A stretch of 64,000 nucleotides of DNA from Acidimicrobiales bacterium (GTDB taxonomy: Bacteria > Actinomycetota > Acidimicrobiia > Acidimicrobiales > CADCSY01): contig JAUJNB010000004.1 of the NCBI GenBank assembly GCA_030446545.1, positions 62,372 to 126,371 on the forward strand, given 5' to 3'. The first letter of the stretch is position 1. Every line of letters starts with the position of its first letter. The translations under genes and the position numbers were made by a program. Under the pieces are notes generated by a model, which searched no databases, was not told the origin of the DNA, and saw nothing but the letters and a program-made list of their open reading frames with translations. Shown in pieces: positions 7,106-64,000 of the stretch.

Positions 7106-8308
7106 GTGAGTGGGCTGGCCGTCTCGGTGAAGGGCGTCTCCAAGCGGTTCCGCCTCTACCACGAGCGCAACCAGTCCCTCAAGGCATCGCTCGTGAGGGG
7201 GAGACGGTCCCGCTACGAGGAGCTGTGGGCACTGCGGGACGTCACGCTCGAGGTCCGGGAAGGGACGACCCTCGGCCTCATCGGCAGGAACGGCTCTGGC
7301 AAGAGCACCCTGCTCAAGACCATGGCCAGGATCCTTCGCCCCGACACCGGACGGATCGTCGTCGACGGAAGGCTGTCGGCCCTCCTGGAGCTGGGCGCAG
7401 GGTTCCATCCTGAGCTCTCCGGACGGGAGAACATCTTCTTGAACGGCTCGATCCTCGGTCTGGGTCGCAAAGAGCTCAAGGCGAAGTTCGACGACATCGT
7501 CGCCTTCGCCGAGGTCGAGCCCTTCATCGACACGCCGGTCAAGGACTACTCCTCGGGCATGTACGTCCGTCTCGGGTTCTCCGTGGCCATCAACGTCGAT
7601 CCCGCCGTGCTGTTGGTGGACGAGGTGCTGGCCGTGGGCGACGAGCAGTTCCAGCGTAAGTGCAGGGAGAAGTTCGCCGACTTGCAGGCCGAGGGTCGCA
7701 CCGTCGTGATCGTCTCCCATGACCTGGGGGCCGTACGCGACGTGTGCCACGAGGCCGCGCTGCTCGAGGACGGCCGCCTGGAGCAAACCGGGCCCGTGGG
7801 CGAGGTGATCGACCATTACCTCGGCCGGGTCCACCATGACCGCCTCGATGATGGCAGCCTCGGCGCCCGCTGGGGGACGGGTGAAGGAGGCATCGAGCGC
7901 ATCGAGGTGCTCGAATTCGGCGGTGGCCCGGCCGCCCGCCTGCGCACAGGCGACCCCGTGGTGTTCCGACTGCACTTCGACACCACCGAGCCCATTGAAC
8001 GGCCGGTGTTCACCCTGACGGTGCATACGGCCGGCGGCGTCCACGTCACCGCGCCCAACACTCGCGACGCCGGCCTGGTTCCCGACGAAGTAAAAGGCAG
8101 AGGCCACATCGACCTACGGGTCGAGCGGCTCCTGCTCGTTCCCGGGACCTATGACCTCGGTGCGTCCCTGACCGACTACACCGGCGCCTATCAGTACGAC
8201 GTGCGTCATCGAGCGTTTCGCTTCGAGGTGGTGGCCGGCAGCCCTGCCGAACGCCATGGGGTCATGTCGTTGGGCGGGCGTTGGGAAGGCTTACCACTGG
8301 AGCGCTGA
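7106..8308 (+). CDS. Polysaccharide ABC exporter, ATPase (Wzt type)
   Basis: About 400 residues: an ABC ATPase domain plus a C-terminal carbohydrate-binding-like domain. Walker A is GRNGSGKST (60-68), the signature is YSSGMYVRLGFSVA near residue 147, and Walker B is AVLLVDEVLAVGD near 167. The E-VLAVGD form is characteristic of the Wzt/TagH subfamily. Residues from about 240 to 400 form a beta-rich Wzt-C domain, which in characterised homologues recognises the capped polymer end. Two GTG starts are possible (7097 and 7106); the latter is preferred because GGCGAGG lies at suitable spacing. It pairs with the Wzm-type permease upstream. Its 3' end overlaps the convergent DUF2142 gene by 47 bases. 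Confidence 0.94.
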   Translation: MSGLAVSVKGVSKRFRLYHERNQSLKASLVRGRRSRYEELWALRDVTLEVREGTTLGLIGRNGSGKSTLLKTMARILRPDTGRIVVDGRLSALLELGAGFHPELSGRENIFLNGSILGLGRKELKAKFDDIVAFAEVEPFIDTPVKDYSSGMYVRLGFSVAINVDPAVLLVDEVLAVGDEQFQRKCREKFADLQAEGRTVVIVSHDLGAVRDVCHEAALLEDGRLEQTGPVGEVIDHYLGRVHHDRLDDGSLGARWGTGEGGIERIEVLEFGGGPAARLRTGDPVVFRLHFDTTEPIERPVFTLTVHTAGGVHVTAPNTRDAGLVPDEVKGRGHIDLRVERLLLVPGTYDLGASLTDYTGAYQYDVRHRAFRFEVVAGSPAERHGVMSLGGRWEGLPLER

Positions 8309-10455: not shown

Positions 10456-11424
10456 ATGGCGAATGACGTGACGGTTGTCGCTGGAGGGGGAGGCTTCATC
10501 GGTGGGCATCTCGTCGCGCGCTTGATCGACGAGGGCCGTCTGGTCAGGGCGGTGGACCGCAAGCCACTCAGCGAGTGGTACCAGGTGCACGCCGGCGTCG
10601 ACAACCGATCGCTCGATCTGCAGCAGATGGAAGCCTGCCGCGCTGCCGTCGAGGGTGCCACCGAGGTCTACAACCTCGCCGCCGACATGGGTGGCATGGG
10701 CTTCATCGAAAATAACAAGGCTTTGTGCATGCTCTCGGTGCTGATCAACACCAACCTCCTACTTGCCAGTCAAGAAGCGGCTACAGACCGCTACTTCTTC
10801 TCATCCTCGGCCTGTGTCTATGCCGCCGGGAAGCAGGTGACAACAGATGTGACTGCCCTGAAAGAGGACGATGCCTACCCGGCCATGCCAGAAGACGGTT
10901 ACGGTTGGGAGAAGCTGTTCAGCGAGCGAATGTGTCGTCACTTTCTCGAAGACTTCAGTCTTACCACCCGGGTGGCGCGCTACCATAACGTGTACGGCGA
11001 ACACGGCACCTACGACGGTGGGCGCGAAAAGGCGCCGGCGGCGATCTGTCGGAAGGTGATCCAGGCCAAGCTTTCAGGTGATCATGAGATTGACGTCTGG
11101 GGCGACGGCGAACAGACTCGAAGCTTTATGTATATCTCAGACTGTATCGACGGTACCTTCAAAATCATGACCAGTGGCATCACCGAGCCGATAAATCTTG
11201 GCAGCTCGGAGTTGGTTTCGATCAACCAGCTGGTCGACATCGTTGAGGAGATCGCCGGTATGACGGTGAAACGTAACTACATCCTGGATGCGCCCCTTGG
11301 TGTCCGAGGTCGCAACAGCGACAACACGCGTATCTGCGAATATCTTAACTGGGAACCCTCTGTCTCACTGAAAGCCGGCCTCGAGCGTACGTATCGATGG
11401 ATCCACGATGAGTTGCAGGCATGA
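10456..11424 (+). CDS. GDP-mannose 3,5-epimerase-like NAD-dependent epimerase
   Basis: A 322-residue extended SDR enzyme. The cofactor loop is AGGGGFIGG (9-17). The block NLAADMGGMGFIENNKALCM is the signature of GDP-mannose 3,5-epimerases, best known from plant vitamin C synthesis and from some bacteria. SSSACVY and YGWEKLFSERMC (catalytic Tyr and Lys near 147-151) complete the active site. A strong ribosome site AGGAGG at 10442-10447 supports the ATG at 10456. If the assignment is right the product would be GDP-L-galactose or GDP-L-gulose, a rare L-sugar donor; related bacterial epimerases with other substrates cannot be excluded. The gene is visibly richer in A/T and in non-GC third positions than its neighbours. 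Confidence 0.83.
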   Translation: MANDVTVVAGGGGFIGGHLVARLIDEGRLVRAVDRKPLSEWYQVHAGVDNRSLDLQQMEACRAAVEGATEVYNLAADMGGMGFIENNKALCMLSVLINTNLLLASQEAATDRYFFSSSACVYAAGKQVTTDVTALKEDDAYPAMPEDGYGWEKLFSERMCRHFLEDFSLTTRVARYHNVYGEHGTYDGGREKAPAAICRKVIQAKLSGDHEIDVWGDGEQTRSFMYISDCIDGTFKIMTSGITEPINLGSSELVSINQLVDIVEEIAGMTVKRNYILDAPLGVRGRNSDNTRICEYLNWEPSVSLKAGLERTYRWIHDELQA

Positions 11425-12985
11425 TGACCACCGCCGCCTAGGGGGGCGTGAGGGCCGCCTCGGGAGCGTTTTGAGGGAACGTGCTCGTCGTCATGCAGGC
11501 GCCTTGGTCGTTGCCGCTGCCTTCGTTACCTGCCGCTTGGTGCTGGCAACCGTTGCTCGCGTCCAGTTCGACAACCGGCCACTCAATGACGCAGCCCAGC
11601 TACTCGACAGAGGACAACTTCGTGACCACCTGCTGGACAGTTTGCTCCACCTGCACGCGCAGCCTCCGCTGTTCAACCTGTTCATCGGATTAGGCTTACA
11701 CGCTCCCATCCGCCTGGAGACCCCGCTGTTTCATGCGCTCTATCTGGGGGTGGGTCTCGCGATCGCTCTCTGCCTCTACACCGTCCTGCGACGATCGGCC
11801 GTGCCCACGTTTTGGGCAGTCGCACTATCCGTCTTGTTCTGCTGCAGCCCCGGCGTATTCTTATACGAGAGCTGGCTCCACTACGACTACCTGGTCGTGC
11901 TTCTTCTTATCCTGGGCGTGGTAGCCCTCCAGCGGTTTCTGCAGGAGCGTCGCCCAGCACAAGCGGCAGGCTTCATCGCCGCTTTGGCCGCAACGGTCCT
12001 CACTCGTAGTATCTTCCACTTGGCCTGGCTGCTCCTCTGGGTAGTCTTGGTCATCCTCATGGCTGCCGACCGACGCCGGGTTCTGGCCGCCGTCAGCCTT
12101 CCCGTGTTGGTCGTGCTCGGGTTCCAAGTCCAGCGCTTCGCCAGCTTCGGGACCATCGCCTTGAGCAGTGGACTCGGGGTGAGCTTGGCAAAGATTACGG
12201 TCTTCCAGCTTCCTCTGGACCAACGGGAGGCCATGGTCGCCAGCGGGGAGCTCTCAGCTGTCTCCTTGGTAGACCCGCTGAGCCCGGCGGCCAACTACTC
12301 GGACCTCGTACCTGCGCCCGCACGAACAGGCGTACCTGTGCTCGACGATGATCAGAAGGGCGTCTATGAAAGCCCGCCCACCAATGACGTCTTCCGGGTG
12401 AACATGAATAGTAGGGTCTTCATTGCGATCTCCAATAGTTACCTTCGAGACTCTCTCCACATCATCCGCAACCGACCAGAGATATACCTCCAGGGTGTCG
12501 CCAAAGCCACCCAGCAGTTCTTCAGGCCCACCAGTGACTTCTTTACTCTTGCCGAGAACCGTGCCCGCGTCGCACCAGTTGAGCGCTTCTTCAACAAGGC
12601 GATCCTCGGCGTGGTCTCCGGAGGAGTCGGCGAGATCGCTATTCCTGATGCTCGCGCTCAGTACACGTTGGGATCCACTTCCCGAACCGCTTGGACCGTC
12701 GTGGCTGCCTACGGCCTCGCCGCCGTCGCTGGCGCCATCCTTCTGCTGAGATCATTGTTCCGGCGCGACACACCCCTCGAGGTGGTGACCCTCACCGGCT
12801 TTCTCTGGTTCACCGTTGGGTACATCTTCTTGGTAAGCAACCTCCTCGAGGTAGGCGAAAACAATCGGTTCCGGCTCTACTCGGACCCCCTGGTCCTCCT
12901 CTTGCTGGCCACCGTCGTCATGGCCTGGCGCCGACCAGGTGGGGTATCCGTCGTGGCGGAAGAGAAGTTCTCTCGTCAGAAATGA
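11408..12985 (+). CDS. GT-C type membrane glycosyltransferase, paralogue of the protein at the left edge
   Basis: A 525-residue multi-spanning protein (about ten hydrophobic helices) with a soluble stretch around residues 270-360. It resembles GT39/ArnT-like polyprenyl-phosphate-sugar transferases, with an early acidic residue in FDNRPLNDAAQLLD after the first helix and HAQPPLFNLF. The C-terminal third matches the partial gene at 1-494 (FFRPTSDFF and SNLLEVGENNRFRLYSDPLV). The ATG at 11408 overlaps the epimerase stop by 17 bases; its ribosome site is weak, and a TTG about 60 bases later is an alternative. The 3' end overlaps the convergent gene by 10 bases. A sugar transfer role in the surface glycan is inferred from context. 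Confidence 0.83.
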   Translation: MSCRHDDHRRLGGREGRLGSVLRERARRHAGALVVAAAFVTCRLVLATVARVQFDNRPLNDAAQLLDRGQLRDHLLDSLLHLHAQPPLFNLFIGLGLHAPIRLETPLFHALYLGVGLAIALCLYTVLRRSAVPTFWAVALSVLFCCSPGVFLYESWLHYDYLVVLLLILGVVALQRFLQERRPAQAAGFIAALAATVLTRSIFHLAWLLLWVVLVILMAADRRRVLAAVSLPVLVVLGFQVQRFASFGTIALSSGLGVSLAKITVFQLPLDQREAMVASGELSAVSLVDPLSPAANYSDLVPAPARTGVPVLDDDQKGVYESPPTNDVFRVNMNSRVFIAISNSYLRDSLHIIRNRPEIYLQGVAKATQQFFRPTSDFFTLAENRARVAPVERFFNKAILGVVSGGVGEIAIPDARAQYTLGSTSRTAWTVVAAYGLAAVAGAILLLRSLFRRDTPLEVVTLTGFLWFTVGYIFLVSNLLEVGENNRFRLYSDPLVLLLLATVVMAWRRPGGVSVVAEEKFSRQK

Positions 12986-13887
12986 GAACGGTAACGATTG
13001 AACGCAGCAACGGTTCGCTCAGGTAGGAACCGGAATAGCGAATCGGCGCTCTTCGCCACGTCACCGACAATCTGTAGGTTGTTCTCATAGCCACCGTACT
13101 CCAGCTTCATGTCAGTTATCGGATCGTGCGGGTTCCGTTCCTGGATCACGGAAGCCTTGCCGAATACCACCTTTGCCCCTTCGCCCTGAAGGTAATAGGC
13201 AGCCCATATGTCGTCCATGCGGCCGACGCCGGGGAACAGGAAATAGTTCTCAAGCCAGGAAGAGGTGATGAAGGTGTTCTGGGAGTCAAAAGGAGCAATA
13301 GCGGTGGAAGCGATCGGGAAGGACTCGTCCTGGAAGGAGCAGTCGGGAGCAAACTGCATACGACAAATGGCATCTATGTCGGGATCTCCGTTCCAGAAGT
13401 CGGCTTGAACGTCCGGCGTCACCACCTGACGGGAGTGCTGGGAGTAGTCGCGCTGAGCCAAAAGCTGAAGCGGGTACCCTCGATGCCACAGATGGGGATA
13501 ATTGGTGGCGCCGATCGGATCGAAGGCGGGCAGCGACGTGGTGAACAGGTTCACCTCGACGGGCTTGCCTACCATCACCTCCGTACCCCACCCCTCGAGC
13601 GGGATGTTGTCGTCATCAACAACCGCAATGATCTCGGCACCCATCTCGTGCGCGAGTAGGAACCCGAAGTTCCGGCGCTGGATGCAGTTCCAGCCGATGA
13701 GGTCGGAGAGTTCCTTGTCGATCCGCTCCTGCTCCTCTGGGCCGACATAGGTTCCGTTGTCGAGGTGGTAACCCTCCGGCGTCTTCCGATCACCGATCAC
13801 GACCAGGTGCCAGTCACCCATCCGGTCGAACATCTCGACTGCCTTGGTCGGAGGATTGATCGTCGTGGTGACGATGACGTTGGTCAT
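12976..13887 (-). CDS. STELLO/RGP-like glycosyltransferase domain protein
   Basis: A 303-residue soluble protein starting MTNVIVTTTINPPTKAVEMF. It contains VVIGDRKTPEGY (29-40), RRNFGFLLAHEMGAEIIAVV (71-90) and directly after it the acidic DDDN (91-94). This layout resembles STELLO proteins (DUF288) and reversibly glycosylated polypeptides, in which the DDD motif binds the metal and nucleotide sugar. Further conserved-looking blocks are FNPL-like VNLFTTSLPAFDPIGATNYP and GRMDDIWAAYYLQ. Bacterial members are found in polysaccharide loci but are poorly characterised. The ATG at 13887 overlaps the stop of the upstream GT2 gene in an ATGA, indicating translational coupling. The donor sugar is unknown. 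Confidence 0.72.
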   Translation of the reverse strand: MTNVIVTTTINPPTKAVEMFDRMGDWHLVVIGDRKTPEGYHLDNGTYVGPEEQERIDKELSDLIGWNCIQRRNFGFLLAHEMGAEIIAVVDDDNIPLEGWGTEVMVGKPVEVNLFTTSLPAFDPIGATNYPHLWHRGYPLQLLAQRDYSQHSRQVVTPDVQADFWNGDPDIDAICRMQFAPDCSFQDESFPIASTAIAPFDSQNTFITSSWLENYFLFPGVGRMDDIWAAYYLQGEGAKVVFGKASVIQERNPHDPITDMKLEYGGYENNLQIVGDVAKSADSLFRFLPERTVAAFNRYRSHF

Positions 13888-14654
13888 CGGACACCTCGTT
13901 GCGAGATTCGAAGGAATGAGTTCGGCGGAGCCAAGCGATTGGTCAAGAGGGTGCGGATGTAACGAGCCTGGGTAGAGAGGGAGTTTTGTGATTCTCCGTC
14001 GGGACGCGGGGCCCAATACGTCGGTATCTCGACCACCTCGATGCCAAGGCGGAGAGGCTTGAGCACGGTTTCAAGCAGGAACTCGTGGCGACTTCCCTCC
14101 CAATCAATCGCCTGGACCAAAGCGGTGGGGAAGAGCCGGTACCCGAAGGTCGCGTCGGTGAGTGGTGTTTGGTACAATAGCGACGTGAGGTGCTGGAAAA
14201 CCCAGTTGGCAGCCACGCGAACCCGTCCGTAACCGGAGAAACCTCCTCCTTGCGCCCACCGGGAGGCGGTAACCACGACTTGCGGCCGCTGCTTGGCGAT
14301 GTCGATGAACGCTGGGACCAGGTTGGGATCCGTTTCGAGATCTGTTGCCATCATGATCACATGGCTGGCCGAAGCCAACTCGAACGCCTCTCGCATGGCG
14401 CCGCCGAGGAACGGTAGGCGCTGCTGATGAATCTGCACGCGTGGGCCGAACCACGTTGCGAGGTCCTCGCAACGCTTCATCGTCTCGGGCGTGGTCCGGT
14501 CACAGACCACGACGAGCACCTGCTCTATGTCGGCATCACTCGTCTTCTTGAGGATGTCAGCGGTCTGGGCGATCGAATCTGTCTCCGTCACCGCCGGCAG
14601 GATGACGGTTGCACCGGAGAACCTCTCGGGCAGTTGCATCCGTTCAGCTTCCAT
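13884..14654 (-). CDS. GT2 family glycosyltransferase (dolichyl-phosphate-sugar synthase-like)
   Basis: A 256-residue GT-A fold enzyme. The N-terminal strand GATVILPAVTETDSI is followed by VLVVVCDRTTPETM. HVIMMATDLETDPNLV carries the acidic metal-binding motif near residue 105, and TDATFGYRLFP is the acceptor-side block found in polyprenyl-phosphate sugar synthases and related GT2 enzymes. It lacks membrane helices at the C terminus. It could supply a polyprenyl-phosphate-linked sugar to the GT-C proteins in this cluster (inference). The start may be the ATG at 14654 or the Met five codons later. It is the first gene of a two-gene unit with the STELLO-like protein (4-base overlap). Codon usage is less GC-biased than in the rml operon. 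Confidence 0.84.
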   Translation of the reverse strand: MEAERMQLPERFSGATVILPAVTETDSIAQTADILKKTSDADIEQVLVVVCDRTTPETMKRCEDLATWFGPRVQIHQQRLPFLGGAMREAFELASASHVIMMATDLETDPNLVPAFIDIAKQRPQVVVTASRWAQGGGFSGYGRVRVAANWVFQHLTSLLYQTPLTDATFGYRLFPTALVQAIDWEGSRHEFLLETVLKPLRLGIEVVEIPTYWAPRPDGESQNSLSTQARYIRTLLTNRLAPPNSFLRISQRGVR

Positions 14655-55970: not shown

Positions 55971-56030
55971 GCCCGCACCTTAGAGGGCGCGCCACCAGGT
56001 GACCGGCCAGGCTCTCGACGCCCGGTGGTG

Positions 56031-57080
56031 TCACCGCCCCTGGCGCTTCCGACGCTGGGCCTCCCTGGCCCCGCGTCCGGAACGGCGTTCGTGCTGACGG
56101 CGCTCGTGCTCGTCGGCCCGGCGCTCGGCCGCCTCGGCCTCACGCAGCAGCCCCGTCCAGTTCTCCCACCGCTCGGTGGCCAGCGCCCCGGTGGCCACCG
56201 CCTCGATGACCGCGCAGCCCGGCTCGCGGTCGTGACGACAGTCGTCGAACCGGCAACCGGCGGCCGTGGCCTCGACGTCGGCGAAGGTGGCCGCCACGGC
56301 GTCGAGGTCGACCGAGAGCCCCACGGCCCGCAGCCCCGGGGTGTCCACCAGCACGCCGCCGCTCGGCAGCGGGTACAGATGCCGGGCAGTGGTGGTGTGG
56401 CGACCCTTGGAATCCCCACCGCGGACGACCCCGGTCGCGGCCACGTCTCCTCCCGCCAGGGCGTTGGTCATGGTGGACTTCCCGGCGCCCGACTCGCCCA
56501 GGAGGACGACGGTGGAATCGTGACACCGCCGGCGCACCTCGCCCAGGCCGTCGCCGGTGGTGGCGCTGGTGAGGATCACGTCGATTCCGGGGCCACCGCG
56601 GCGCACCGTCTCCGCCCGTCGCTCGGGATCGGCCACCAGATCAGCCTTGGTCAGCACCACGACAGGTGTGGCGCCGGCATCCCAGGCCAGGGTGACCGAG
56701 CGTTCGATGCGCCCGGGCTTGACCGGTCGGTCGAGGCCGCAGACCACGAAGACCACGTCGACGTTGGCCACGAGCGGCTGCTCCCCGCCGGTGCCGGGAT
56801 CCTGGCGGCGCAGGAGCGAGTGCCGGGGCACGACGGCCACCACCACCTGGGCCGACCGGTCGAGCGCCACCCAGTCACCCACGACGGGGGGCGGATCGGC
56901 GCCGGGGGGTACGTGGAGGTGCTCGAGGGCCCCGTCGACGGTCACGGCCAGCACGGCCGAACCGTCGTGGCGCACGACCCGCCCGGGTTGGGCGTCGGGC
57001 CACGACGACGCCACCTCGCGGAACCCGGGGGTCCAGCGTTCGCCCCACCCGTAGGCCTCCAACTTCGGCGACGTCACCAC
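56031..57080 (-). CDS. rsgA: Ribosome small subunit maturation GTPase RsgA
   Basis: A 349-residue circularly permuted GTPase. After an OB-fold (VVGDWVALDRSAQVVVAV) the G motifs come in the order G4 (LTKADL, near 145), G5 (TSATTGDGL), G1 (LLGESGAGKSTMTNAL, near 195) and G3 (DTPGLR, near 245). The zinc-binding C-terminal domain is CRFDDCRHDREPGCAV, with Cys and His ligands. It helps late 30S maturation and leaves on GTP hydrolysis. The C terminus is very basic (ERRQHERRSGRGAREAQRR). GTG start at 57080. It is divergent from the large regulator at 57166. Confidence 0.96.
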   Translation of the reverse strand: MVTSPKLEAYGWGERWTPGFREVASSWPDAQPGRVVRHDGSAVLAVTVDGALEHLHVPPGADPPPVVGDWVALDRSAQVVVAVVPRHSLLRRQDPGTGGEQPLVANVDVVFVVCGLDRPVKPGRIERSVTLAWDAGATPVVVLTKADLVADPERRAETVRRGGPGIDVILTSATTGDGLGEVRRRCHDSTVVLLGESGAGKSTMTNALAGGDVAATGVVRGGDSKGRHTTTARHLYPLPSGGVLVDTPGLRAVGLSVDLDAVAATFADVEATAAGCRFDDCRHDREPGCAVIEAVATGALATERWENWTGLLREAEAAERRADEHERRQHERRSGRGAREAQRRKRQGR

Positions 57081-57165
57081 AAGACTTGTACACCACCGAG
57101 CTGACCTTGGTGGCCGAGATCCAGCGGAACCCCGTTGGAGCGGGGGATCCTAAGCTCGCGTCGGC

Positions 57166-60100
57166 ATGACTTCGCCGGAACCCCAGGGCCGCCCACCGGG
57201 CGGAAGGGTGCTCCAGGACAGGGACCTGGCCCTGGAGCTGCGGTTGCTCGGCCACCCGACCCTCCTCCTCGAGGGCAAGACCATCGTGGGCTTCTCCTCG
57301 CTCCGGATGCAGCGGCTGCTGGCGGCGCTCGTCCTCGAGCCGGACACCGCCGTCCCGAGGTCGAGGATGGCCTTCCAGCTCTGGCCCGAATCGACCGAAG
57401 CCCAGGCCCGAACCAACCTCCGCAAGCTGCTCCACGAACTGCGCCAGATGCTCTCCGGAGCCGGGGCCGACCTGGAGGTCGACCAACAGCGGCTGCGGTG
57501 GCGAGCGGCCCCGTCGAGCTGGGTCGACGTGATCGCGTTCCGGGACGCCCTCGAGCGAGGTGACGACGACGCAGCCGCCACCACCTACGCCGGCGACCTG
57601 TTGCCGGACTGCTACGACGACTGGGTCATCGAGGCTCGGGATCGGCTCCGCCAGGCGGCCGGCGGCGCGCTCGACCGGCTCGCCGCCGCCGCCGAGGACC
57701 GGGGGGACCACCTCGCCACCATCGATCATGCGTGTGCCCGACTCCGTCTCGAACCCTGGTGGGAACCGGCCCACCGCCATCTCATACGAGCGCACGGTCG
57801 TCTCGGAAACCGGGCCGAGGCACTCCGCAGCTACCACCGCTGCGCTGAGGTTCTGGCCAAGGAGCTCGGGGTCGAACCGGACCCGACCACCCGCCGAGCG
57901 TACGAGGCCGTGCGCCCATCGATCAGCCCGGCGGCCGGCGCCACGGTGGTCGCGCCTTCGTCGTCGTCAGCGGTCGGCCGGAACGTCGAGCTCGACCGGA
58001 TGGCGTCGGTGTGGGAACGGGCGACGGCTTGCCGCAGCCAGCTGCTGCTCGTCACCGGTGACGCCGGCATCGGCAAGAGCCGGCTGGTCGACGAGCTGGC
58101 TCGATCGGTCCAGAGCCGGGCCACGGTGGCCCGCTCACGAGCCTATGAGGCCGCAGGCCGGCTTCCGTGGGGCCCGGTCGTCGAGTGGTTGCGCTCCGGC
58201 GGCCTGGAACAGGCCCGCCATCGGCTGGCGCCGAGCTGGCGGGCCGAGTTGGCCGTCCTCCTCCCCGAGCTCCGTGCCGAGGCCGGGACCGCGCCCCGCC
58301 ATGAGGGTGACCCCGGGGGGCGCACGCAGCTCTTCGACGCCATCTCCCATGCGCTCCTGGCCGATGACCGCCCCGTCCTGTTGGTCATCGACGACCTCCA
58401 GTGGTGCGACCTCGACACCATCGACCTCATCGGTTACCTGGTCTCCACCCGCCCCTCGTCCCCCGTGCTCGTGGCCGGCACCGTCCGGATCGACGAGGTG
58501 GCCGACGACCATCCCCTGCGCCGGTTGGTCACCGGGCTCCAGCGGGAGGCGGCAGTGACCCAGATCGATCTTGGACCTCTCGACCTCGCCGCCACCAGCG
58601 ACCTGGTGCGCCGGCTGACCGGGGTCGAGGTCGAGCCCGGGGCGCTCGAACGCCTCTGGCGCGAGACCGCCGGGAACCCCCTGTTCCTGGTGGAGGCGGT
58701 GCGCGCCGGGCTGACCGAGCAGGCAGCTGCTTCCACATCGCTGTTGCCCACCGTCAAGGCAACGATCGGCGCCCGTCTGGCCCGTCTCTCGCCCGGGGCC
58801 CGGGCCTTGGTCGAGCTGACCGCCGCGCTGGGCCGCGAGTTCACCGCCGACGTCGTGGTGAGGGCATCCGACCAGGAACCGCAGCAAGTGCTCGATGCGC
58901 TCGACGAGCTGTGGCAACGCCGCATCGTGCGGGAGCTGGGTGCGGGCTACGACTTCACCCACGACAAGATCCGGGAAGTGGCCTACGACGGCATCAGCCC
59001 GGTTCGGCGTCGGCGTCTCCACTGGGCCGCGGCCCAGGCCCTCTTGGATGCCCACGGCGACGATCCGGGCCCGCTCAGCGCCCACCTGGCCGCTCAGCTG
59101 GAGGCGGCCGGACAGGTGGGCGCCGCGGTCGATGCCCACCGCCGGGCCGCCGAGCACGCCGCCGCAGTCTTCGGACTGGACGAGGCCATCGCGTCCTGCC
59201 GGCGTGGCCTCGCCCTGCTCGAGCAGCTCCCCCCGGGCCGCGACCGCGACGAGCAGGAGCTGGAGCTCCGACTGGCGCTCGGCGCGCCGGTGGTCGCGCT
59301 CGAGGGATACGGCTCCGCGCTCGGACAGGACGTGTACGGTCGCACGCTGGCGCTGTGCCGGCACCTTGGCCGCCGCGTCGACCCGGCCACCTTGCGAGGT
59401 CTGGGCCTGGCCGCGGTCACCTCGTGCCAGTTCCCCCGCGCCGCCGCGTTCGGCGCGGAGCTCCTGGCCATCGAGAACGACCCGATCGCCAGGACGGAGG
59501 GCCACTACCTGCTCGGTGTCACCGCCTTCTGGCGGGGCGCGTTGGCGTCGGCCGAGCACCATCTCCGGGCGGCCGTCTCTAGCTACCGACCGGACCTCGG
59601 ACCGACCCACCGCCTCTACTACGCGCAGGATCCCAAGGCGGTGTGCCTGGTGCGCCTGGCGGTGACGCGGCTCTGGCGGGGAGACACCGAGGAGGCCAGG
59701 GAGCTGGCCGAGGAGGCCCGGTCCTTCGCCCTCTCGCTCGACCACCCGATGACCTTGAGATACGTGCTCCTGTTCACCTCGATGGCCGCCATCGAGCTCT
59801 CTGACGAGTCCTGGCTCCGGCGCGACCTGAACCAGGTGGCCGCAGTGGGTGAGCACGGACTGGCCTTCGTGAGAGTCGTCGAGCGCATCTACGAAGCCTG
59901 GATCGGGATCCTCGACCGCCGGGAGGCCGCACTCGACGAGCTGGAGGCCGCCGTCGAGGCCTGTCGCGTGGAGTCGGTCAGCCTGCACCTCACCCACGGC
60001 CTCAGCATCCTCGCTCGGGCTCACCTTCGTCTCGGCCGGGCCGAACGGGGCCTCTCGGCGGTCCGGGAGGGTCAGGCCTGGGCCGCGGCGCACGACCAGC

Positions 60101-60381
60101 ACTACACGGATCCGCTTCTGCACCGGATCGAGGGAGAGCTGCTGGAGGCCCACGGTGACCTCCCCGGGGCGGCGGCAGCCTTCGACCGGGCCAGGGACGT
60201 CGCCGTAGCTCAGGGGGCGGACCGCTTCATCCGGTCGGCCGTCGACGGCCACACCCGGGTGGGCTCGGCCTCACTCCGGGCGGGGCGGGACAGGGGAACG
60301 TCTGAGGGAACGCTCGGGGAACACCCCGGTGGGCACGGTGGGCGGCGCCAGGACGCGTCATCGACAGGAGGAGTCCCATGA
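57166..60381 (+). CDS. Large SARP/BTAD-AAA-TPR transcriptional regulator
   Basis: A 1071-residue regulator. Residues about 20-120 form a winged-helix OmpR-like domain (LELRLLGHPTLLLEGKTI, ARTNLRKLLHELRQML). Residues about 125-255 are the bacterial transcriptional activation domain: YAGDLLPDCYDDWVIEARDR, RLGNRAEALRSYHRCAEVL and KELGVEPDPTTRRAYE. Then come an NB-ARC/AAA ATPase (Walker A GDAGIGKSR near 299; Walker B LLVIDDLQWCD near 405) and TPR-like helices to the C terminus. Such proteins activate biosynthetic or specialised clusters. The stop overlaps the flavoprotein start (ATGA), so that gene is probably under its control or co-expressed. ATG start at 57166. Confidence 0.88.
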   Translation: MTSPEPQGRPPGGRVLQDRDLALELRLLGHPTLLLEGKTIVGFSSLRMQRLLAALVLEPDTAVPRSRMAFQLWPESTEAQARTNLRKLLHELRQMLSGAGADLEVDQQRLRWRAAPSSWVDVIAFRDALERGDDDAAATTYAGDLLPDCYDDWVIEARDRLRQAAGGALDRLAAAAEDRGDHLATIDHACARLRLEPWWEPAHRHLIRAHGRLGNRAEALRSYHRCAEVLAKELGVEPDPTTRRAYEAVRPSISPAAGATVVAPSSSSAVGRNVELDRMASVWERATACRSQLLLVTGDAGIGKSRLVDELARSVQSRATVARSRAYEAAGRLPWGPVVEWLRSGGLEQARHRLAPSWRAELAVLLPELRAEAGTAPRHEGDPGGRTQLFDAISHALLADDRPVLLVIDDLQWCDLDTIDLIGYLVSTRPSSPVLVAGTVRIDEVADDHPLRRLVTGLQREAAVTQIDLGPLDLAATSDLVRRLTGVEVEPGALERLWRETAGNPLFLVEAVRAGLTEQAAASTSLLPTVKATIGARLARLSPGARALVELTAALGREFTADVVVRASDQEPQQVLDALDELWQRRIVRELGAGYDFTHDKIREVAYDGISPVRRRRLHWAAAQALLDAHGDDPGPLSAHLAAQLEAAGQVGAAVDAHRRAAEHAAAVFGLDEAIASCRRGLALLEQLPPGRDRDEQELELRLALGAPVVALEGYGSALGQDVYGRTLALCRHLGRRVDPATLRGLGLAAVTSCQFPRAAAFGAELLAIENDPIARTEGHYLLGVTAFWRGALASAEHHLRAAVSSYRPDLGPTHRLYYAQDPKAVCLVRLAVTRLWRGDTEEARELAEEARSFALSLDHPMTLRYVLLFTSMAAIELSDESWLRRDLNQVAAVGEHGLAFVRVVERIYEAWIGILDRREAALDELEAAVEACRVESVSLHLTHGLSILARAHLRLGRAERGLSAVREGQAWAAAHDQHYTDPLLHRIEGELLEAHGDLPGAAAAFDRARDVAVAQGADRFIRSAVDGHTRVGSASLRAGRDRGTSEGTLGEHPGGHGGRRQDASSTGGVP

Positions 60382-61754
60382 GCACCATCGAAGGGTTGCG
60401 AGCCCGAGCCCGGGGCCCGGTGATCGGCCCCGACGACGACGGGTACGACGAGCACCGCACCGTCTACAACGCCATGCACGACCGCCGACCGGCGGTCATC
60501 GTGCGCTGCGCCGATGCAGCCGACGTCATCGCCGCCGTTCATCACGCCCGGGAGAACGATCTCGATCTGGCCGTGCGCGGTGGTGGTCACAGCGTGCCGG
60601 GGTTCGGCACGTGCACAGGAGGCGTAGTGGTCGACCTCTCTCCCATGCGCAACGTCAGCGTCGACCCGGTCAAGAGAACGGCTCGTGCCGGCGGCGGCGC
60701 CACGTGGGGTGATTTCGACCACGCCACCCACGGGTTCGGACTGGCCACCACCGGCGGCATCATCTCGACCACGGGGGTCGGCGGTCTCACGCTCGGAGGC
60801 GGCATCGGGTACCTGACGCGAGGCCACGGACTGTCGATCGACAACCTCCTCTCGGCCGACGTGGTGACGGCGGACGGCCGCCAGGTGACCGCCAGCGACT
60901 ATCAGCACGAGGATCTCTTCTGGGCCCTGCAGGGCGGTGGCGGGAACTTCGGCGTGGTCACCGCCTTGGAGTTCCAGCTCCACGAGTGCGACACCATCGT
61001 CGGGGGGCCGCTCTTCTACGAGGTCGACGACGCCGAGGCGGTCCTGCAGCTCTACCGCGAGTACATCGACAGCGCTCCCGAGCAACTGGGTTGCTTCTTC
61101 GCCTGGCAGATCGCGCCGCCGCTGCCCTTCGTGCCCGAGAACCGGGTGGGTGACCTCTTCTGCGCCATGGTGACGTGTTGGAACGGTCCCCTCGACAAGG
61201 CTGAAGCGGTCATGAAGCCGCTCCGGGACGTCGCCGAGGTCAAGGCCGAGCACGTCGGTCCCATGCCCTACCCGGCGCTCAACGGCGCGTTCGACGGCTT
61301 GGTCCCTCCCGGGCTCCAGCACTACTGGAAGGCGGACTTCGTCACCGAGCTCAGCGACGACGCCATCCGAGCCCACATCGAGCACGGGAAGAAGACGCCG
61401 GTGGTCAACTCGACCATGCACCTCTACCCGATCAACGGGGCGGTGCAGCGAGTGAGCACCGACGAGACGGCCTTTGGCCATCGCGACAAGAAGTTCGCGG
61501 CGGTGATCGCCGGCATGTGGCCGGACCCGGCCGACAACGAGGCCAACACCCAATGGGTGCGGGACTACTACGCCGGGATCCATCCCCACTCGGGCAGCGA
61601 CGGCGGCTACGTCAACTTCATGGCCGAGGACGATGCCCACCGGACCGAGGCCAACTTCGGGCGCAACTACGGCCGCCTGGCCGAGGTGAAGGCCGCCTGG
61701 GACCCGGACAACCTCTTCCACCTCAACCAGAACATCAAGCCGGCATCACGCTAG
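60378..61754 (+). CDS. FAD-binding berberine-bridge-type oxidoreductase
   Basis: A 458-residue flavoprotein of the FAD_binding_4/BBE family. LAVRGGGHSVPGFG (65-78) contains His71, the expected covalent 8-alpha-histidyl FAD site. TTGVGGLTLGGGIGYLTR is the second FAD-binding block; a Cys that forms a second covalent link in some members is missing, so attachment is probably mono-covalent. YWKADFVTELSDDAIRAHI and the C-terminal NYGRLAEVKAAWDPDNLFHL with NQNI are typical of the BBE domain. These enzymes oxidise sugars or alcohols, or carry out cyclisations; the substrate is unknown. A good ribosome site (GACAGGAGGAG) lies within the end of the regulator gene. Confidence 0.9.
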   Translation: MSTIEGLRARARGPVIGPDDDGYDEHRTVYNAMHDRRPAVIVRCADAADVIAAVHHARENDLDLAVRGGGHSVPGFGTCTGGVVVDLSPMRNVSVDPVKRTARAGGGATWGDFDHATHGFGLATTGGIISTTGVGGLTLGGGIGYLTRGHGLSIDNLLSADVVTADGRQVTASDYQHEDLFWALQGGGGNFGVVTALEFQLHECDTIVGGPLFYEVDDAEAVLQLYREYIDSAPEQLGCFFAWQIAPPLPFVPENRVGDLFCAMVTCWNGPLDKAEAVMKPLRDVAEVKAEHVGPMPYPALNGAFDGLVPPGLQHYWKADFVTELSDDAIRAHIEHGKKTPVVNSTMHLYPINGAVQRVSTDETAFGHRDKKFAAVIAGMWPDPADNEANTQWVRDYYAGIHPHSGSDGGYVNFMAEDDAHRTEANFGRNYGRLAEVKAAWDPDNLFHLNQNIKPASR

Positions 61755-62033
61755 AGGCCGCCTGCCTCCCCGCATCCCGGGAGGACCCACCGCCTGGCTC
61801 TGTCGAACGCAGTCACCAACTGCGAGGCACCGCTCCTCTGATCGCTGATCGACGGTCAAGCAACCCCAGGCCCTACCAGGCCACCGGACGGCAGGTCATG
61901 GTCGCAGTGCTCGACGCCAACCCGCTCGGCGGGGACGTGAACGGCTCGGGAGGCTGATCGAAGAGGCCCAGTAGCAACGCGCGCCTCGTTGCTCGCCGGT
62001 CGCCGGACGCGGCCACCGTTACCGTGGATCACG
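61755..62033. other. Intergenic region before the helicase gene
   Basis: A 279-base gap with no convincing gene. A 19-codon open frame at 61898-61957 (MVAVLDANPLGGDVNGSGG) is a poor candidate. It should contain the promoter of the helicase gene. Base composition changes just after it, which may mark the edge of an accessory island. Confidence 0.5.
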
Positions 62034-64000
62034 ATGTCCGCGAGTGCCCCAGACCAGGCGCAGAGAATTCTGCTCGCCCTCGCGGATCTCGCGCCGTCGG
62101 GTGAGCAGCGAACGGTGGCCCTGAGCGTTCCGACCGAATGGTTCCGATGGCTGGATGCCGCCTCGGTGCGCCTGTTCGTTCCCCGCCCCTACTACGAAGG
62201 CACCGGGACGGCCGCCGAGGCCATCCGTCGCTTCGCCACACCGGAGGAGGCGGCGATGCGCTTTGCGTCCGTCGACCGCACCTTCGCCGAGCGTCTCGCC
62301 AGCGTTGACCAGTTGCGGCCGGAACAGCGATCGCTCAGGGTTGGATGGTTGTTCGTCGCAGGCCGAATGAAGGACCATTCGGCGCGCGTCAGGCGTGTGC
62401 TCCACCCTCTTGTGACCGTCCCCGTTCGCGTCGACCGCGCGCCAGGTTGGGGGCCTGCTCGCCTTCGTCCCGCCGGGGACGTCGAGGTCTCCGAACTCAT
62501 CGAAGACCGCCAAGAGCGCTACCGGTTGGAAGGCCAGATCCAGCTCGGCGGCGGCGCCTTGGACGGCATGAACGACGTCACGATCCCGCCCGCGCTCCTC
62601 GCACGGCTCGACCATCTCCAGCAATTCGCTCGATCTGTGGCGAGCGCCGCCCGACTTCCAGCGTCGCTGGTCGTGCCGGCCACCGACGGCCCCGAGAAGT
62701 TGATGACCGCGAAAGGCCTGGTGATTGTTGCGGGTGTCGGTGTCTTCGCAACACATGAGACGGGCACGGCGAGCAGAGCAGGATCCCTTCGCGCCTGGGC
62801 AGCGAGCCCTCTCTCGGAATGGACCGCCTTCCACGCGCTGTACCTCGACGCCGATCCGCCCGCGGTCGCCAACCCCGAGCACTCGGTCACGGTGGAGTCG
62901 CCGTACCTGCTGACGCCCGCACAGCGCGACGCGATCATCCGAAGCCGTCGAGAGCACATCACGGTCGTCTCGGGAGCTCCCGGCACCGGAAAGTCGCACA
63001 CCGTCGTCTCCATCGCGTGCGACGCGCTCAGCCGAGGTGAAAGCGTGCTTGTCGCGGCGAAGTCCGACGCAACGGTCGACGCACTCCTCGACCTCTTCGA
63101 GCGTTCGCCCGGTCCAGATCCCGTCGTGTTCGGTTCGAGCGAACGTCGTGAGGCCTTGGCCAATCGTCTGGCAGCCGGCCAGCTGCAGCCGATCTCGGAC
63201 AACGCAGTACGCGGAGCACGCGCCGCGCACGAGCGTGCTCGCGATGACGAACGGTCCCTCCGCCAGCGCATAGCCGATCAGCTGGGTGCAGAGGAGTTGG
63301 TGACGCGGTCCGGTGCGAGCCAGGACCGGGCTCGGCGCGATGCGCCGGGCTTCTTCGACCCCGCCACGGACCTCGTCGAGGTGGAGCGGGTACTGGACGC
63401 GGCGCTCAGCCCCGCACGCGGTTGGTGGCGGGGTCGTCGACGGCGACGGTACCAGCGTTCCCTGCTCGCCTCGGCGCGCGCATCCGCTGATGTGCCGCTC
63501 GTCCAGCTCACCGAAGCTCTGCGGGTAGCGCGCGCCACCCACGTCGCGTCTCGGCTCGTCGTCGACGGAGGCCTGGAGATCGGCGGCGCGTGGACGGACC
63601 TACGAGACCTCAACGACCGAGCCCGTCGAGCGACAGCCGAATGGCTCGCCGCCGATAGCCGGTCCGACGAGCGGCTCAACCGAGCGACACTTCCGACGGT
63701 GGCAGCCCTCGCCACTGCCCTCCGGAGCGGTCGAGCAGCGCGGCGGGATCAGCTCAGCCGGCTCGACCGGAGGCTCACACGGGCCCTGCCGCTGTGGGTT
63801 GGGTCGCTTCCCGACATCGACGACCTGTTGCCCGCCGTGAGCGGGTTCTTCGATCTCGTCATCCTCGACGAGGCATCGTCCATCGACCAATCGCTCGCCG
63901 TGCCCGGTCTCCTCCGTGCCCGTCGAGGGGTCATTGTTGGCGACCCACAGCAGCTTCGCCATGTGTCCTTCCTCTCCGACGAGCGGCTCAGGAGCGTCAT
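62034..64000 (+). CDS. Superfamily 1 DNA/RNA helicase-like AAA protein (runs off the window)
   Basis: The frame is open from the ATG at 62034 to the right edge, at least 655 residues. The first 310 residues are an N-terminal region without a known signature. SGAPGTGKSHTVVSIACDAL (about 313-332) is Walker A, followed by SVLVAAKSDATVDALLDLF, motif Ia of superfamily 1 helicases. FDLVILDEASSIDQSLAVPG near 610 is the DE-x-x Walker B, and VIVGDPQQLRHVSFLSDERL is motif III (GDPxQL). This resembles Upf1-like AAA_11/AAA_12 helicases seen in several defence systems and in nuclease-helicase fusions. Codons such as CGA and TTG are commoner than in neighbouring genes, hinting at transfer. The C terminus and any nuclease lie outside the window. 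Confidence 0.85.
   Translation, partial: MSASAPDQAQRILLALADLAPSGEQRTVALSVPTEWFRWLDAASVRLFVPRPYYEGTGTAAEAIRRFATPEEAAMRFASVDRTFAERLASVDQLRPEQRSLRVGWLFVAGRMKDHSARVRRVLHPLVTVPVRVDRAPGWGPARLRPAGDVEVSELIEDRQERYRLEGQIQLGGGALDGMNDVTIPPALLARLDHLQQFARSVASAARLPASLVVPATDGPEKLMTAKGLVIVAGVGVFATHETGTASRAGSLRAWAASPLSEWTAFHALYLDADPPAVANPEHSVTVESPYLLTPAQRDAIIRSRREHITVVSGAPGTGKSHTVVSIACDALSRGESVLVAAKSDATVDALLDLFERSPGPDPVVFGSSERREALANRLAAGQLQPISDNAVRGARAAHERARDDERSLRQRIADQLGAEELVTRSGASQDRARRDAPGFFDPATDLVEVERVLDAALSPARGWWRGRRRRRYQRSLLASARASADVPLVQLTEALRVARATHVASRLVVDGGLEIGGAWTDLRDLNDRARRATAEWLAADSRSDERLNRATLPTVAALATALRSGRAARRDQLSRLDRRLTRALPLWVGSLPDIDDLLPAVSGFFDLVILDEASSIDQSLAVPGLLRARRGVIVGDPQQLRHVSFLSDERLRSV

What the first reader, a model, noticed from the sequence alone, without database searches (positions are those of the whole stretch)
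62034..64000. Superfamily 1 helicase at the edge of a possible defence island
The protein has a long uncharacterised N terminus, Walker A, DE-x-x and GDPxQL motifs, and a codon style unlike its neighbours. Such helicases are core parts of several antiphage systems. The missing right flank is where nuclease or effector genes would be expected.
Basis: partly seen in the sequence, partly recalled or inferred. Interest (0 to 1): 0.55.

Follow-up and report, generated by a model that had tools for sequence, protein, structure and literature searches.

The report
Lone mobile UPF1-like helicase with nuclease-fold tail
A single, probably acquired gene for a DNA/RNA-unwinding enzyme with a nuclease-shaped tail sits in a gene-exchange zone next to a tRNA gene; it may help resist viruses or mobile DNA, but no other defence genes surround it.

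Summary
In detail: window 62034-64000 is the first two thirds of an intact 981-aa superfamily 1 helicase with clean motifs and atypical codon use. The missing right flank exists on the same contig and I read it. The gene ends at window-equivalent 64979 and carries its own C-terminal Vsr-endonuclease-fold domain, whose catalytic positions are only partly kept. The 'uncharacterised N terminus' is covered by structural matches to the stalk/OB region of UPF1/IGHMBP2 helicases. There is no defence island: the flanks hold an FAD oxidase, a regulator, RsgA, a broken subtilase, tRNA-Sec and housekeeping genes, and 84 neighbours of its relatives give no convincing defence hit. It does look mobile: absent from two of three sister genomes, elsewhere and on a different branch in the third, patchy in its order (14 of 298 genomes with strong matches), and lying in a variable stretch beside a half copy of tRNA-Sec. 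Best reading: a solitary accessory UPF1-like helicase/Vsr-fold protein, probably acting against foreign nucleic acid; function untested. It resembles type III-B CoCoNuT CnuH but lacks the McrBC partners.

The parts
62034..64000 (+). UPF1-like SF1 helicase with C-terminal Vsr-fold domain, in-window part (residues 1-655 of 981; stop at window-equivalent 64979 = L003 3351)
62034..62903 (+). N-terminal region (residues 1-290): stalk and OB/1B-like part of UPF1-like helicases; no Pfam match
   Evidence: predicted model of a 62% identical relative aligns from residue 5-6 to IGHMBP2/UPF1 helicase cores, Z 20-22; no Pfam family there
62973..62996 (+). Walker A, GAPGTGKS
   Evidence: G317, T318, G319, K320 invariant in 19 rows
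63117..63773 (+). long helical insertion between Walker A and motif II (residues ~362-580)
   Evidence: helices H362-373 to H573-579 in the relative's model; poorly conserved in sequence
63867..63878 (+). motif II, DEAS
   Evidence: D612 E613 invariant
63939..63956 (+). motif III, GDPQQL
   Evidence: G636 D637 P638 Q640 L641 invariant
60378..61754 (+). FAD-binding / berberine-bridge-type oxidase, left neighbour
   Evidence: Pfam FAD_binding_4 and BBE; unit 57163-61801 is 93.5% identical in sister G298
57208..60381 (+). BTAD/AAA_16 transcriptional regulator
   Evidence: Pfam
56031..57080 (-). RsgA-type GTPase
   Evidence: Pfam RsgA_GTPase
55991..64000 (.). in-window part of the variable interval between the pilus-type cluster and tRNA-Sec; in sister G298 the two are about 0.1 kb apart
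   Evidence: blastn of sister loci, junction alignments

Best explanation
An accessory, horizontally acquired, one-gene UPF1-like SF1 helicase whose C terminus is a Vsr-fold (PD-(D/E)xK-like) domain. Shown by computation: intact frame, UPF1-type fold including an N-terminal stalk/OB region and a helical insertion, a Vsr-like tail, patchy distribution, disagreement of its tree with taxonomy, and position in a variable stretch beside a half copy of tRNA-Sec. Inferred: it loads through its OB/stalk region on single-stranded nucleic acid, translocates using ATP, and delivers the tail to the target, which cleaves or clamps it; the benefit to the cell is control of phage or mobile-element nucleic acid. 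Because E925 and the usual second acidic or lysine position are not conserved, a binding rather than cutting tail is about as likely.
For: Full ORF and motifs. UPF1/IGHMBP2 structural match Z 20-22 within model residues 5-870. Tail alone: 3hrl Z 10.2, I-Bth0305I Z 9.5, E. coli Vsr 1cw0 Z 8.3 (model pLDDT only 65); weak MTES_1575 Pfam hit (E 0.0045, below cut-off). No match in G067 and G233, a 62% identical homolog elsewhere in G298. Tree: the window gene pairs with G079 of another family (99/95); one clade of the four f1 rows rejected, p-AU 0.010, and of the two g1 rows, p 2e-41. 14 of 298 genomes of the order with E <= 1e-90. Variable interval and tRNA-Sec half copy. The best plasmid relative (28% identity over residues 584-975) starts about 60 bases after brxL of a BREX system.
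Against: No defence neighbour recognised here or at relatives, no integrase match on this contig, no named defence family reached its cut-off. Catalytic pattern of the tail is degenerate: D912 in 18 of 19, E925 in 13 of 19, position 927 (D in the 3hrl relative) acidic in 4 of 19. A defence role is inference from class and mobility; housekeeping repair or RNA metabolism is not excluded.
Confidence: 0.5

Rival explanations
1. A non-defence accessory helicase for DNA repair or RNA surveillance (like IGHMBP2, Dna2 or SETX), lost in many lineages; the tail binds nucleic acid.
For: Neighbours of relatives are largely ordinary metabolic and transport genes; G136 and G289 share the gene's neighbourhood and G298 has a HAD hydrolase gene in the corresponding position beside its copy, so it can be stably inherited; nearest solved relatives by sequence are mostly eukaryotic repair/RNA helicases; degenerate tail.
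Against: Very patchy (14 of 298), moves between loci and lineages, no partner repair gene found.
Confidence: 0.33
2. Part of a true defence island whose other genes have been lost or scrambled in the 5.5 kb right flank.
For: The flank holds broken frames and a subtilase; PADLOC lists a subtilase model among its system components.
Against: Only Peptidase_S8, Inhibitor_I9 and a marginal DUF4350 matched in 61 fragments; the half tRNA-Sec separates that segment from the helicase; no defence neighbours recognised at relatives.
Confidence: 0.07
3. Passive cargo or relic with no present benefit.
For: Atypical codons; a relative is in frameshifted pieces in G278 (L055) and only a C-terminal remnant was matched in G162.
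Against: Frame intact with all helicase motifs conserved at 60-66% identity across families.
Confidence: 0.1

Closest known systems
Type III-B CoCoNuT CnuH (UPF1-like helicase fused to Vsr-like nuclease; PMC11090510, passages and section 9 part 1 read)
   Same: UPF1-like SF1 core, OB region, large helical insertion after Walker A, Vsr-like domain fused directly to the helicase
   Different: No McrB/McrC (CnuB/CnuC) or CnuA partner found; no N-terminal wHTH recognised; tail with degenerate active-site positions. Not compared residue by residue with CnuH.
Mokosh (MkoA/MkoC)
   Same: SF1 core (PADLOC 2.5e-30 and 8e-30)
   Different: PLD nuclease (recalled as Mokosh's effector) not found; the tail is Vsr-fold
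Hhe and other large DUF4011/DUF3320 helicases with MTES_1575 REase (PMC3710099, passages read)
   Same: SF1 core; weak MTES_1575 match in the tail
   Different: 981 aa against 1797-1911 positions in the Hhe models; no DUF4011 or DUF3320 match; 49.9 bits against a cut-off of 2000
IGHMBP2/UPF1/Dna2
   Same: Fold within residues about 5-850
   Different: Bacterial, with a Vsr-fold tail at the C terminus

Membership tests
UPF1-like SF1 helicase | SF1 motifs I, II, III and C-terminal RecA motifs | tested here: met
   AAA_11, AAA_12 above cut-off; invariant residues
UPF1-like SF1 helicase | stalk plus OB/1B domain before motif I and helical insertion after it | tested here: met
   fold match of a 62% identical relative to IGHMBP2/UPF1 from residue 5-6, Z 20-22; helices 362-579 in its model (mean pLDDT 71). 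The OB barrel was not superposed on its own.
CoCoNuT type III-B | Vsr-like domain fused to the helicase | tested here: met
   fold of the tail alone, Z 8-10, moderate model confidence
CoCoNuT type III-B | operon with McrB-type GTPase and McrC-type partner | tested here: not met
   no McrBC (PF10117) match in own genome, 71% complete; none among the local genes scanned
Mokosh | PLD-family nuclease in operon or fused (recalled) | tested here: not met
   no PLD match in the protein or the local genes scanned
Hhe | curated model score | tested here: not met
   NF042953 49.9 bits against cut-off 2000
Defence island gene | neighbouring defence genes | tested here: not met
PD-(D/E)xK nuclease (active) | conserved catalytic acidic residues and Lys or Vsr-type His | tested here: inconclusive
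   D912 18 of 19, E925 13 of 19, H929 17 of 19, H936 19 of 19, no Lys at 927

The most novel reading that the evidence does not exclude
A stand-alone, single-gene immune family of Actinomycetota: a UPF1-like helicase that carries a Vsr-type Asp/His tail as its own effector and needs no McrBC partner, spreading through tRNA-Sec and other sites among ordinary genes, hence invisible to guilt-by-association searches.
Probability: 0.25. Interest if true: 0.55.

Novelty: new variant of a known kind. Interest (0 to 1): 0.33.

Why it matters
UPF1-like helicases fused to Vsr-like domains have been described as parts of multi-gene McrBC-type systems (PMC11090510). A solitary, mobile version scattered among ordinary genes would suggest that the helicase and its tail can work alone, and that such genes escape searches that rely on defence islands. 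It also flags tRNA-Sec as a gene-exchange zone in this group.

Tried and rejected
Defence-island reading: rejected after reading 22.5 kb to the right and scanning neighbours. Neighbour scan: 84 genes, up to four per side, at 16 relative loci, some very short called genes left out. PADLOC hits mad3, mad2, AriA, mad8, HTH_VI, capH and CARF3 are 1-3 members each; I read them as generic ABC, kinase or regulator matches and did not check them one by one. L014 (near duplicate of L013), L047 (syntenic with L046), the contig-edge loci L029, L040 and L055, and L056, L057, L085 and L096-L098 were not in that scan.

Prophage or plasmid gene: three unannotated phage records at 26-27% coverage, no plasmid hit covering 80%, two weak viral contigs.

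Integrase in the island: none on contig C18. RNA families: only tRNA-Sec. An IS630-like transposase at L003 4400-5120 was only guessed by eye; Pfam gave no transposase match there, so it stays unproved.

Phylum search: 10 of 396 genomes at E <= 1e-60; six of these, the window's own included, have full-length matches at E <= 4e-277, the other four are core-level or partial. Order search: of 21 of 298 with E <= 1e-30 I count 14 as relatives (E <= 1e-90, the window's own genome included); the other seven are core-level or partial matches, one of them (G162) a 45% identical C-terminal remnant.

Literature: searches gave no paper describing this stand-alone family in the listings that I saw; the library is partial. 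Apart from PMC11090510 and PMC3710099 I saw search listings only.

Full report
What is there. The window is contig C18:62372-126371 of a 2.57-Mb, 44-contig, 71% complete genome; most named relatives found by sequence are Acidimicrobiia or other Actinomycetota MAGs. The finding's ORF starts at ATG 62034 and runs off the window. The contig continues for 22.5 kb, which I fetched as L003 and L004 (window coordinate = L003 position + 61628). The gene is complete: 981 aa, stop at L003 3351, window-equivalent 64979.

Anatomy. Pfam finds AAA_11 and AAA_12 well above cut-off and a sub-threshold MTES_1575 restriction-endonuclease-like match at 888-968. The closest solved sequences are IGHMBP2, SEN1/SETX, UPF1 and Dna2. 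Nineteen rows align with the helicase motif residues invariant. A predicted model of a 62% identical relative (mean pLDDT 71) aligns with IGHMBP2 and UPF1 at Z 20-22 from residue 5-6 to about 840-870, so the first 290 residues fall in the stalk and OB region of this class. A long, poorly conserved helical insertion follows Walker A. The last 110 residues of the relative, folded alone (pLDDT 65), match NGO0050 (3hrl, Z 10.2), the I-Bth0305I catalytic domain (Z 9.5), domains of mitoribosomal and FASTKD proteins (Z 8.3-9.5) and E. coli Vsr (1cw0, Z 8.3). Among 19 rows D912 is kept in 18, E925 in 13, H929 in 17 and H936 in 19; position 927, which is D in the weak 3hrl sequence alignment (E 0.66), is acidic in only 4. 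Fold: Vsr-like. Activity: open.

Codon style. By my codon-model score the gene is second lowest of 46 genes right of 15 kb; GC3 is 0.78 against a median of 0.89 in 58 genes. Its relatives are below their local median in 16 of 17 loci; two pairs of these loci are near duplicates or syntenic.

Left and right flanks. Left: FAD/BBE oxidase, BTAD regulator and RsgA GTPase, then a cluster that I read as a TadA-type pilus cluster from the translations (not tested). Right: 5.5 kb without an intact long gene, where 61 six-frame fragments gave only subtilase, its I9 inhibitor domain and a marginal DUF4350; then tRNA-Sec at L003 8881-8976, a YitT-type membrane gene and SahH (identified through the G233 copies), PGI/SIS, PGM/PMM, a CAAX protease and an FtsH-like protease. 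SahH and the YitT gene are split over two and four frame pieces at 73-94% identity, so at least some breaks in this flank are assembly indels or very fresh decay.

A variable stretch at tRNA-Sec. A half copy of tRNA-Sec (5' half with its leader) lies at window-equivalent 65489-65588, 0.5 kb behind the helicase. In sister G298 the pilus homology ends at L082 7905 and an intact tRNA-Sec stands at 8032-8127, whereas the window genome has 9.5 kb between pilus and half tRNA and 14.5 kb to the intact tRNA. G067 keeps RsgA there but has other genes and its own half copy, in a stretch of about 200 bp shared at 92% with the window genome. The regulator-oxidase unit is 93.5% identical in G298, on another contig, although pilus and SahH regions of the two genomes are about 69-78% and 79% identical; that match stops at 61801, just before the helicase. 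I therefore read the interval as an exchange zone. Whether the helicase came with the unit, alone or earlier is not shown; G298's short interval could also be a deletion.

Mobility of the gene. G067 and G233 have no match at E <= 1e-5; G298 has a 62% identical copy on another contig. In the tree the window gene pairs with G079 of another family (99/95), while the G298 copy groups with other-genus members of family f1. Forcing the four f1 rows into one clade is rejected (p-AU 0.010) and the two g1 rows strongly so (2e-41); the groups follow from taxonomy, though I ran the test after seeing the tree. In the order 14 of 298 sampled genomes hold a strong match. Across the loci that I compared, whole neighbourhoods recur only between near relatives (L046/L047, L013/L014).

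Defence link. PADLOC models MkoC, MkoA, PDC-S37 and Hhe match the core, but NCBIfam's Hhe, ProA and PLuB models are far below cut-off. The best plasmid relative, a larger protein, starts about 60 bases after brxL of a BREX system. Against this, no convincing defence gene was found beside the gene or among 84 neighbours of relatives. The closest published design that I found is CnuH of type III-B CoCoNuTs, a UPF1-like helicase with a directly fused Vsr-like domain (PMC11090510, section 9 part 1 read); its McrBC partners were not found here (genome 71% complete).

Verdict. An intact, mobile, solitary UPF1-like helicase with a Vsr-fold tail. A role against foreign nucleic acid is my leading guess (0.5); a repair or RNA-surveillance role is the main rival (0.33). 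The defence-island claim fails.

Noticed in passing
L003 3861-3960 and 8881-8976 (window-equivalent 65489-65588, 70509-70604): Half copy and full copy of tRNA-Sec flank a 5-kb broken segment; G067 has the same kind of half copy in a stretch of about 200 bp shared at 92%. tRNA-Sec seems an insertion hotspot in this genus.
   Followed up: partly
window 57163-61801: BTAD regulator plus FAD oxidase unit is 93.5% identical to G298 while the other compared regions are 69-79% identical: a recently exchanged unit.
   Followed up: partly
L003 9270-11400: YitT-type gene and SahH split over several frames at high identity, and length differences in runs of G and C in the tRNA-Sec of this assembly: likely indel errors at this contig end.
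   Followed up: partly
L080 186-5000 (G067): Genes beside the half tRNA-Sec in G067 look by eye like a lasso-peptide cluster (ABC transporter, PqqD-like protein, asparagine-synthetase-like protein, 39-aa peptide).
   Followed up: no
window 10456-14639: Block of four genes with low GC3 (0.71-0.74) and low codon score, another candidate acquired segment.
   Followed up: no
G162 C7:216209-216670 (L056): C-terminal remnant (residues 818-973, 45% identity) of the same helicase family, apparently a decayed copy.
   Followed up: no
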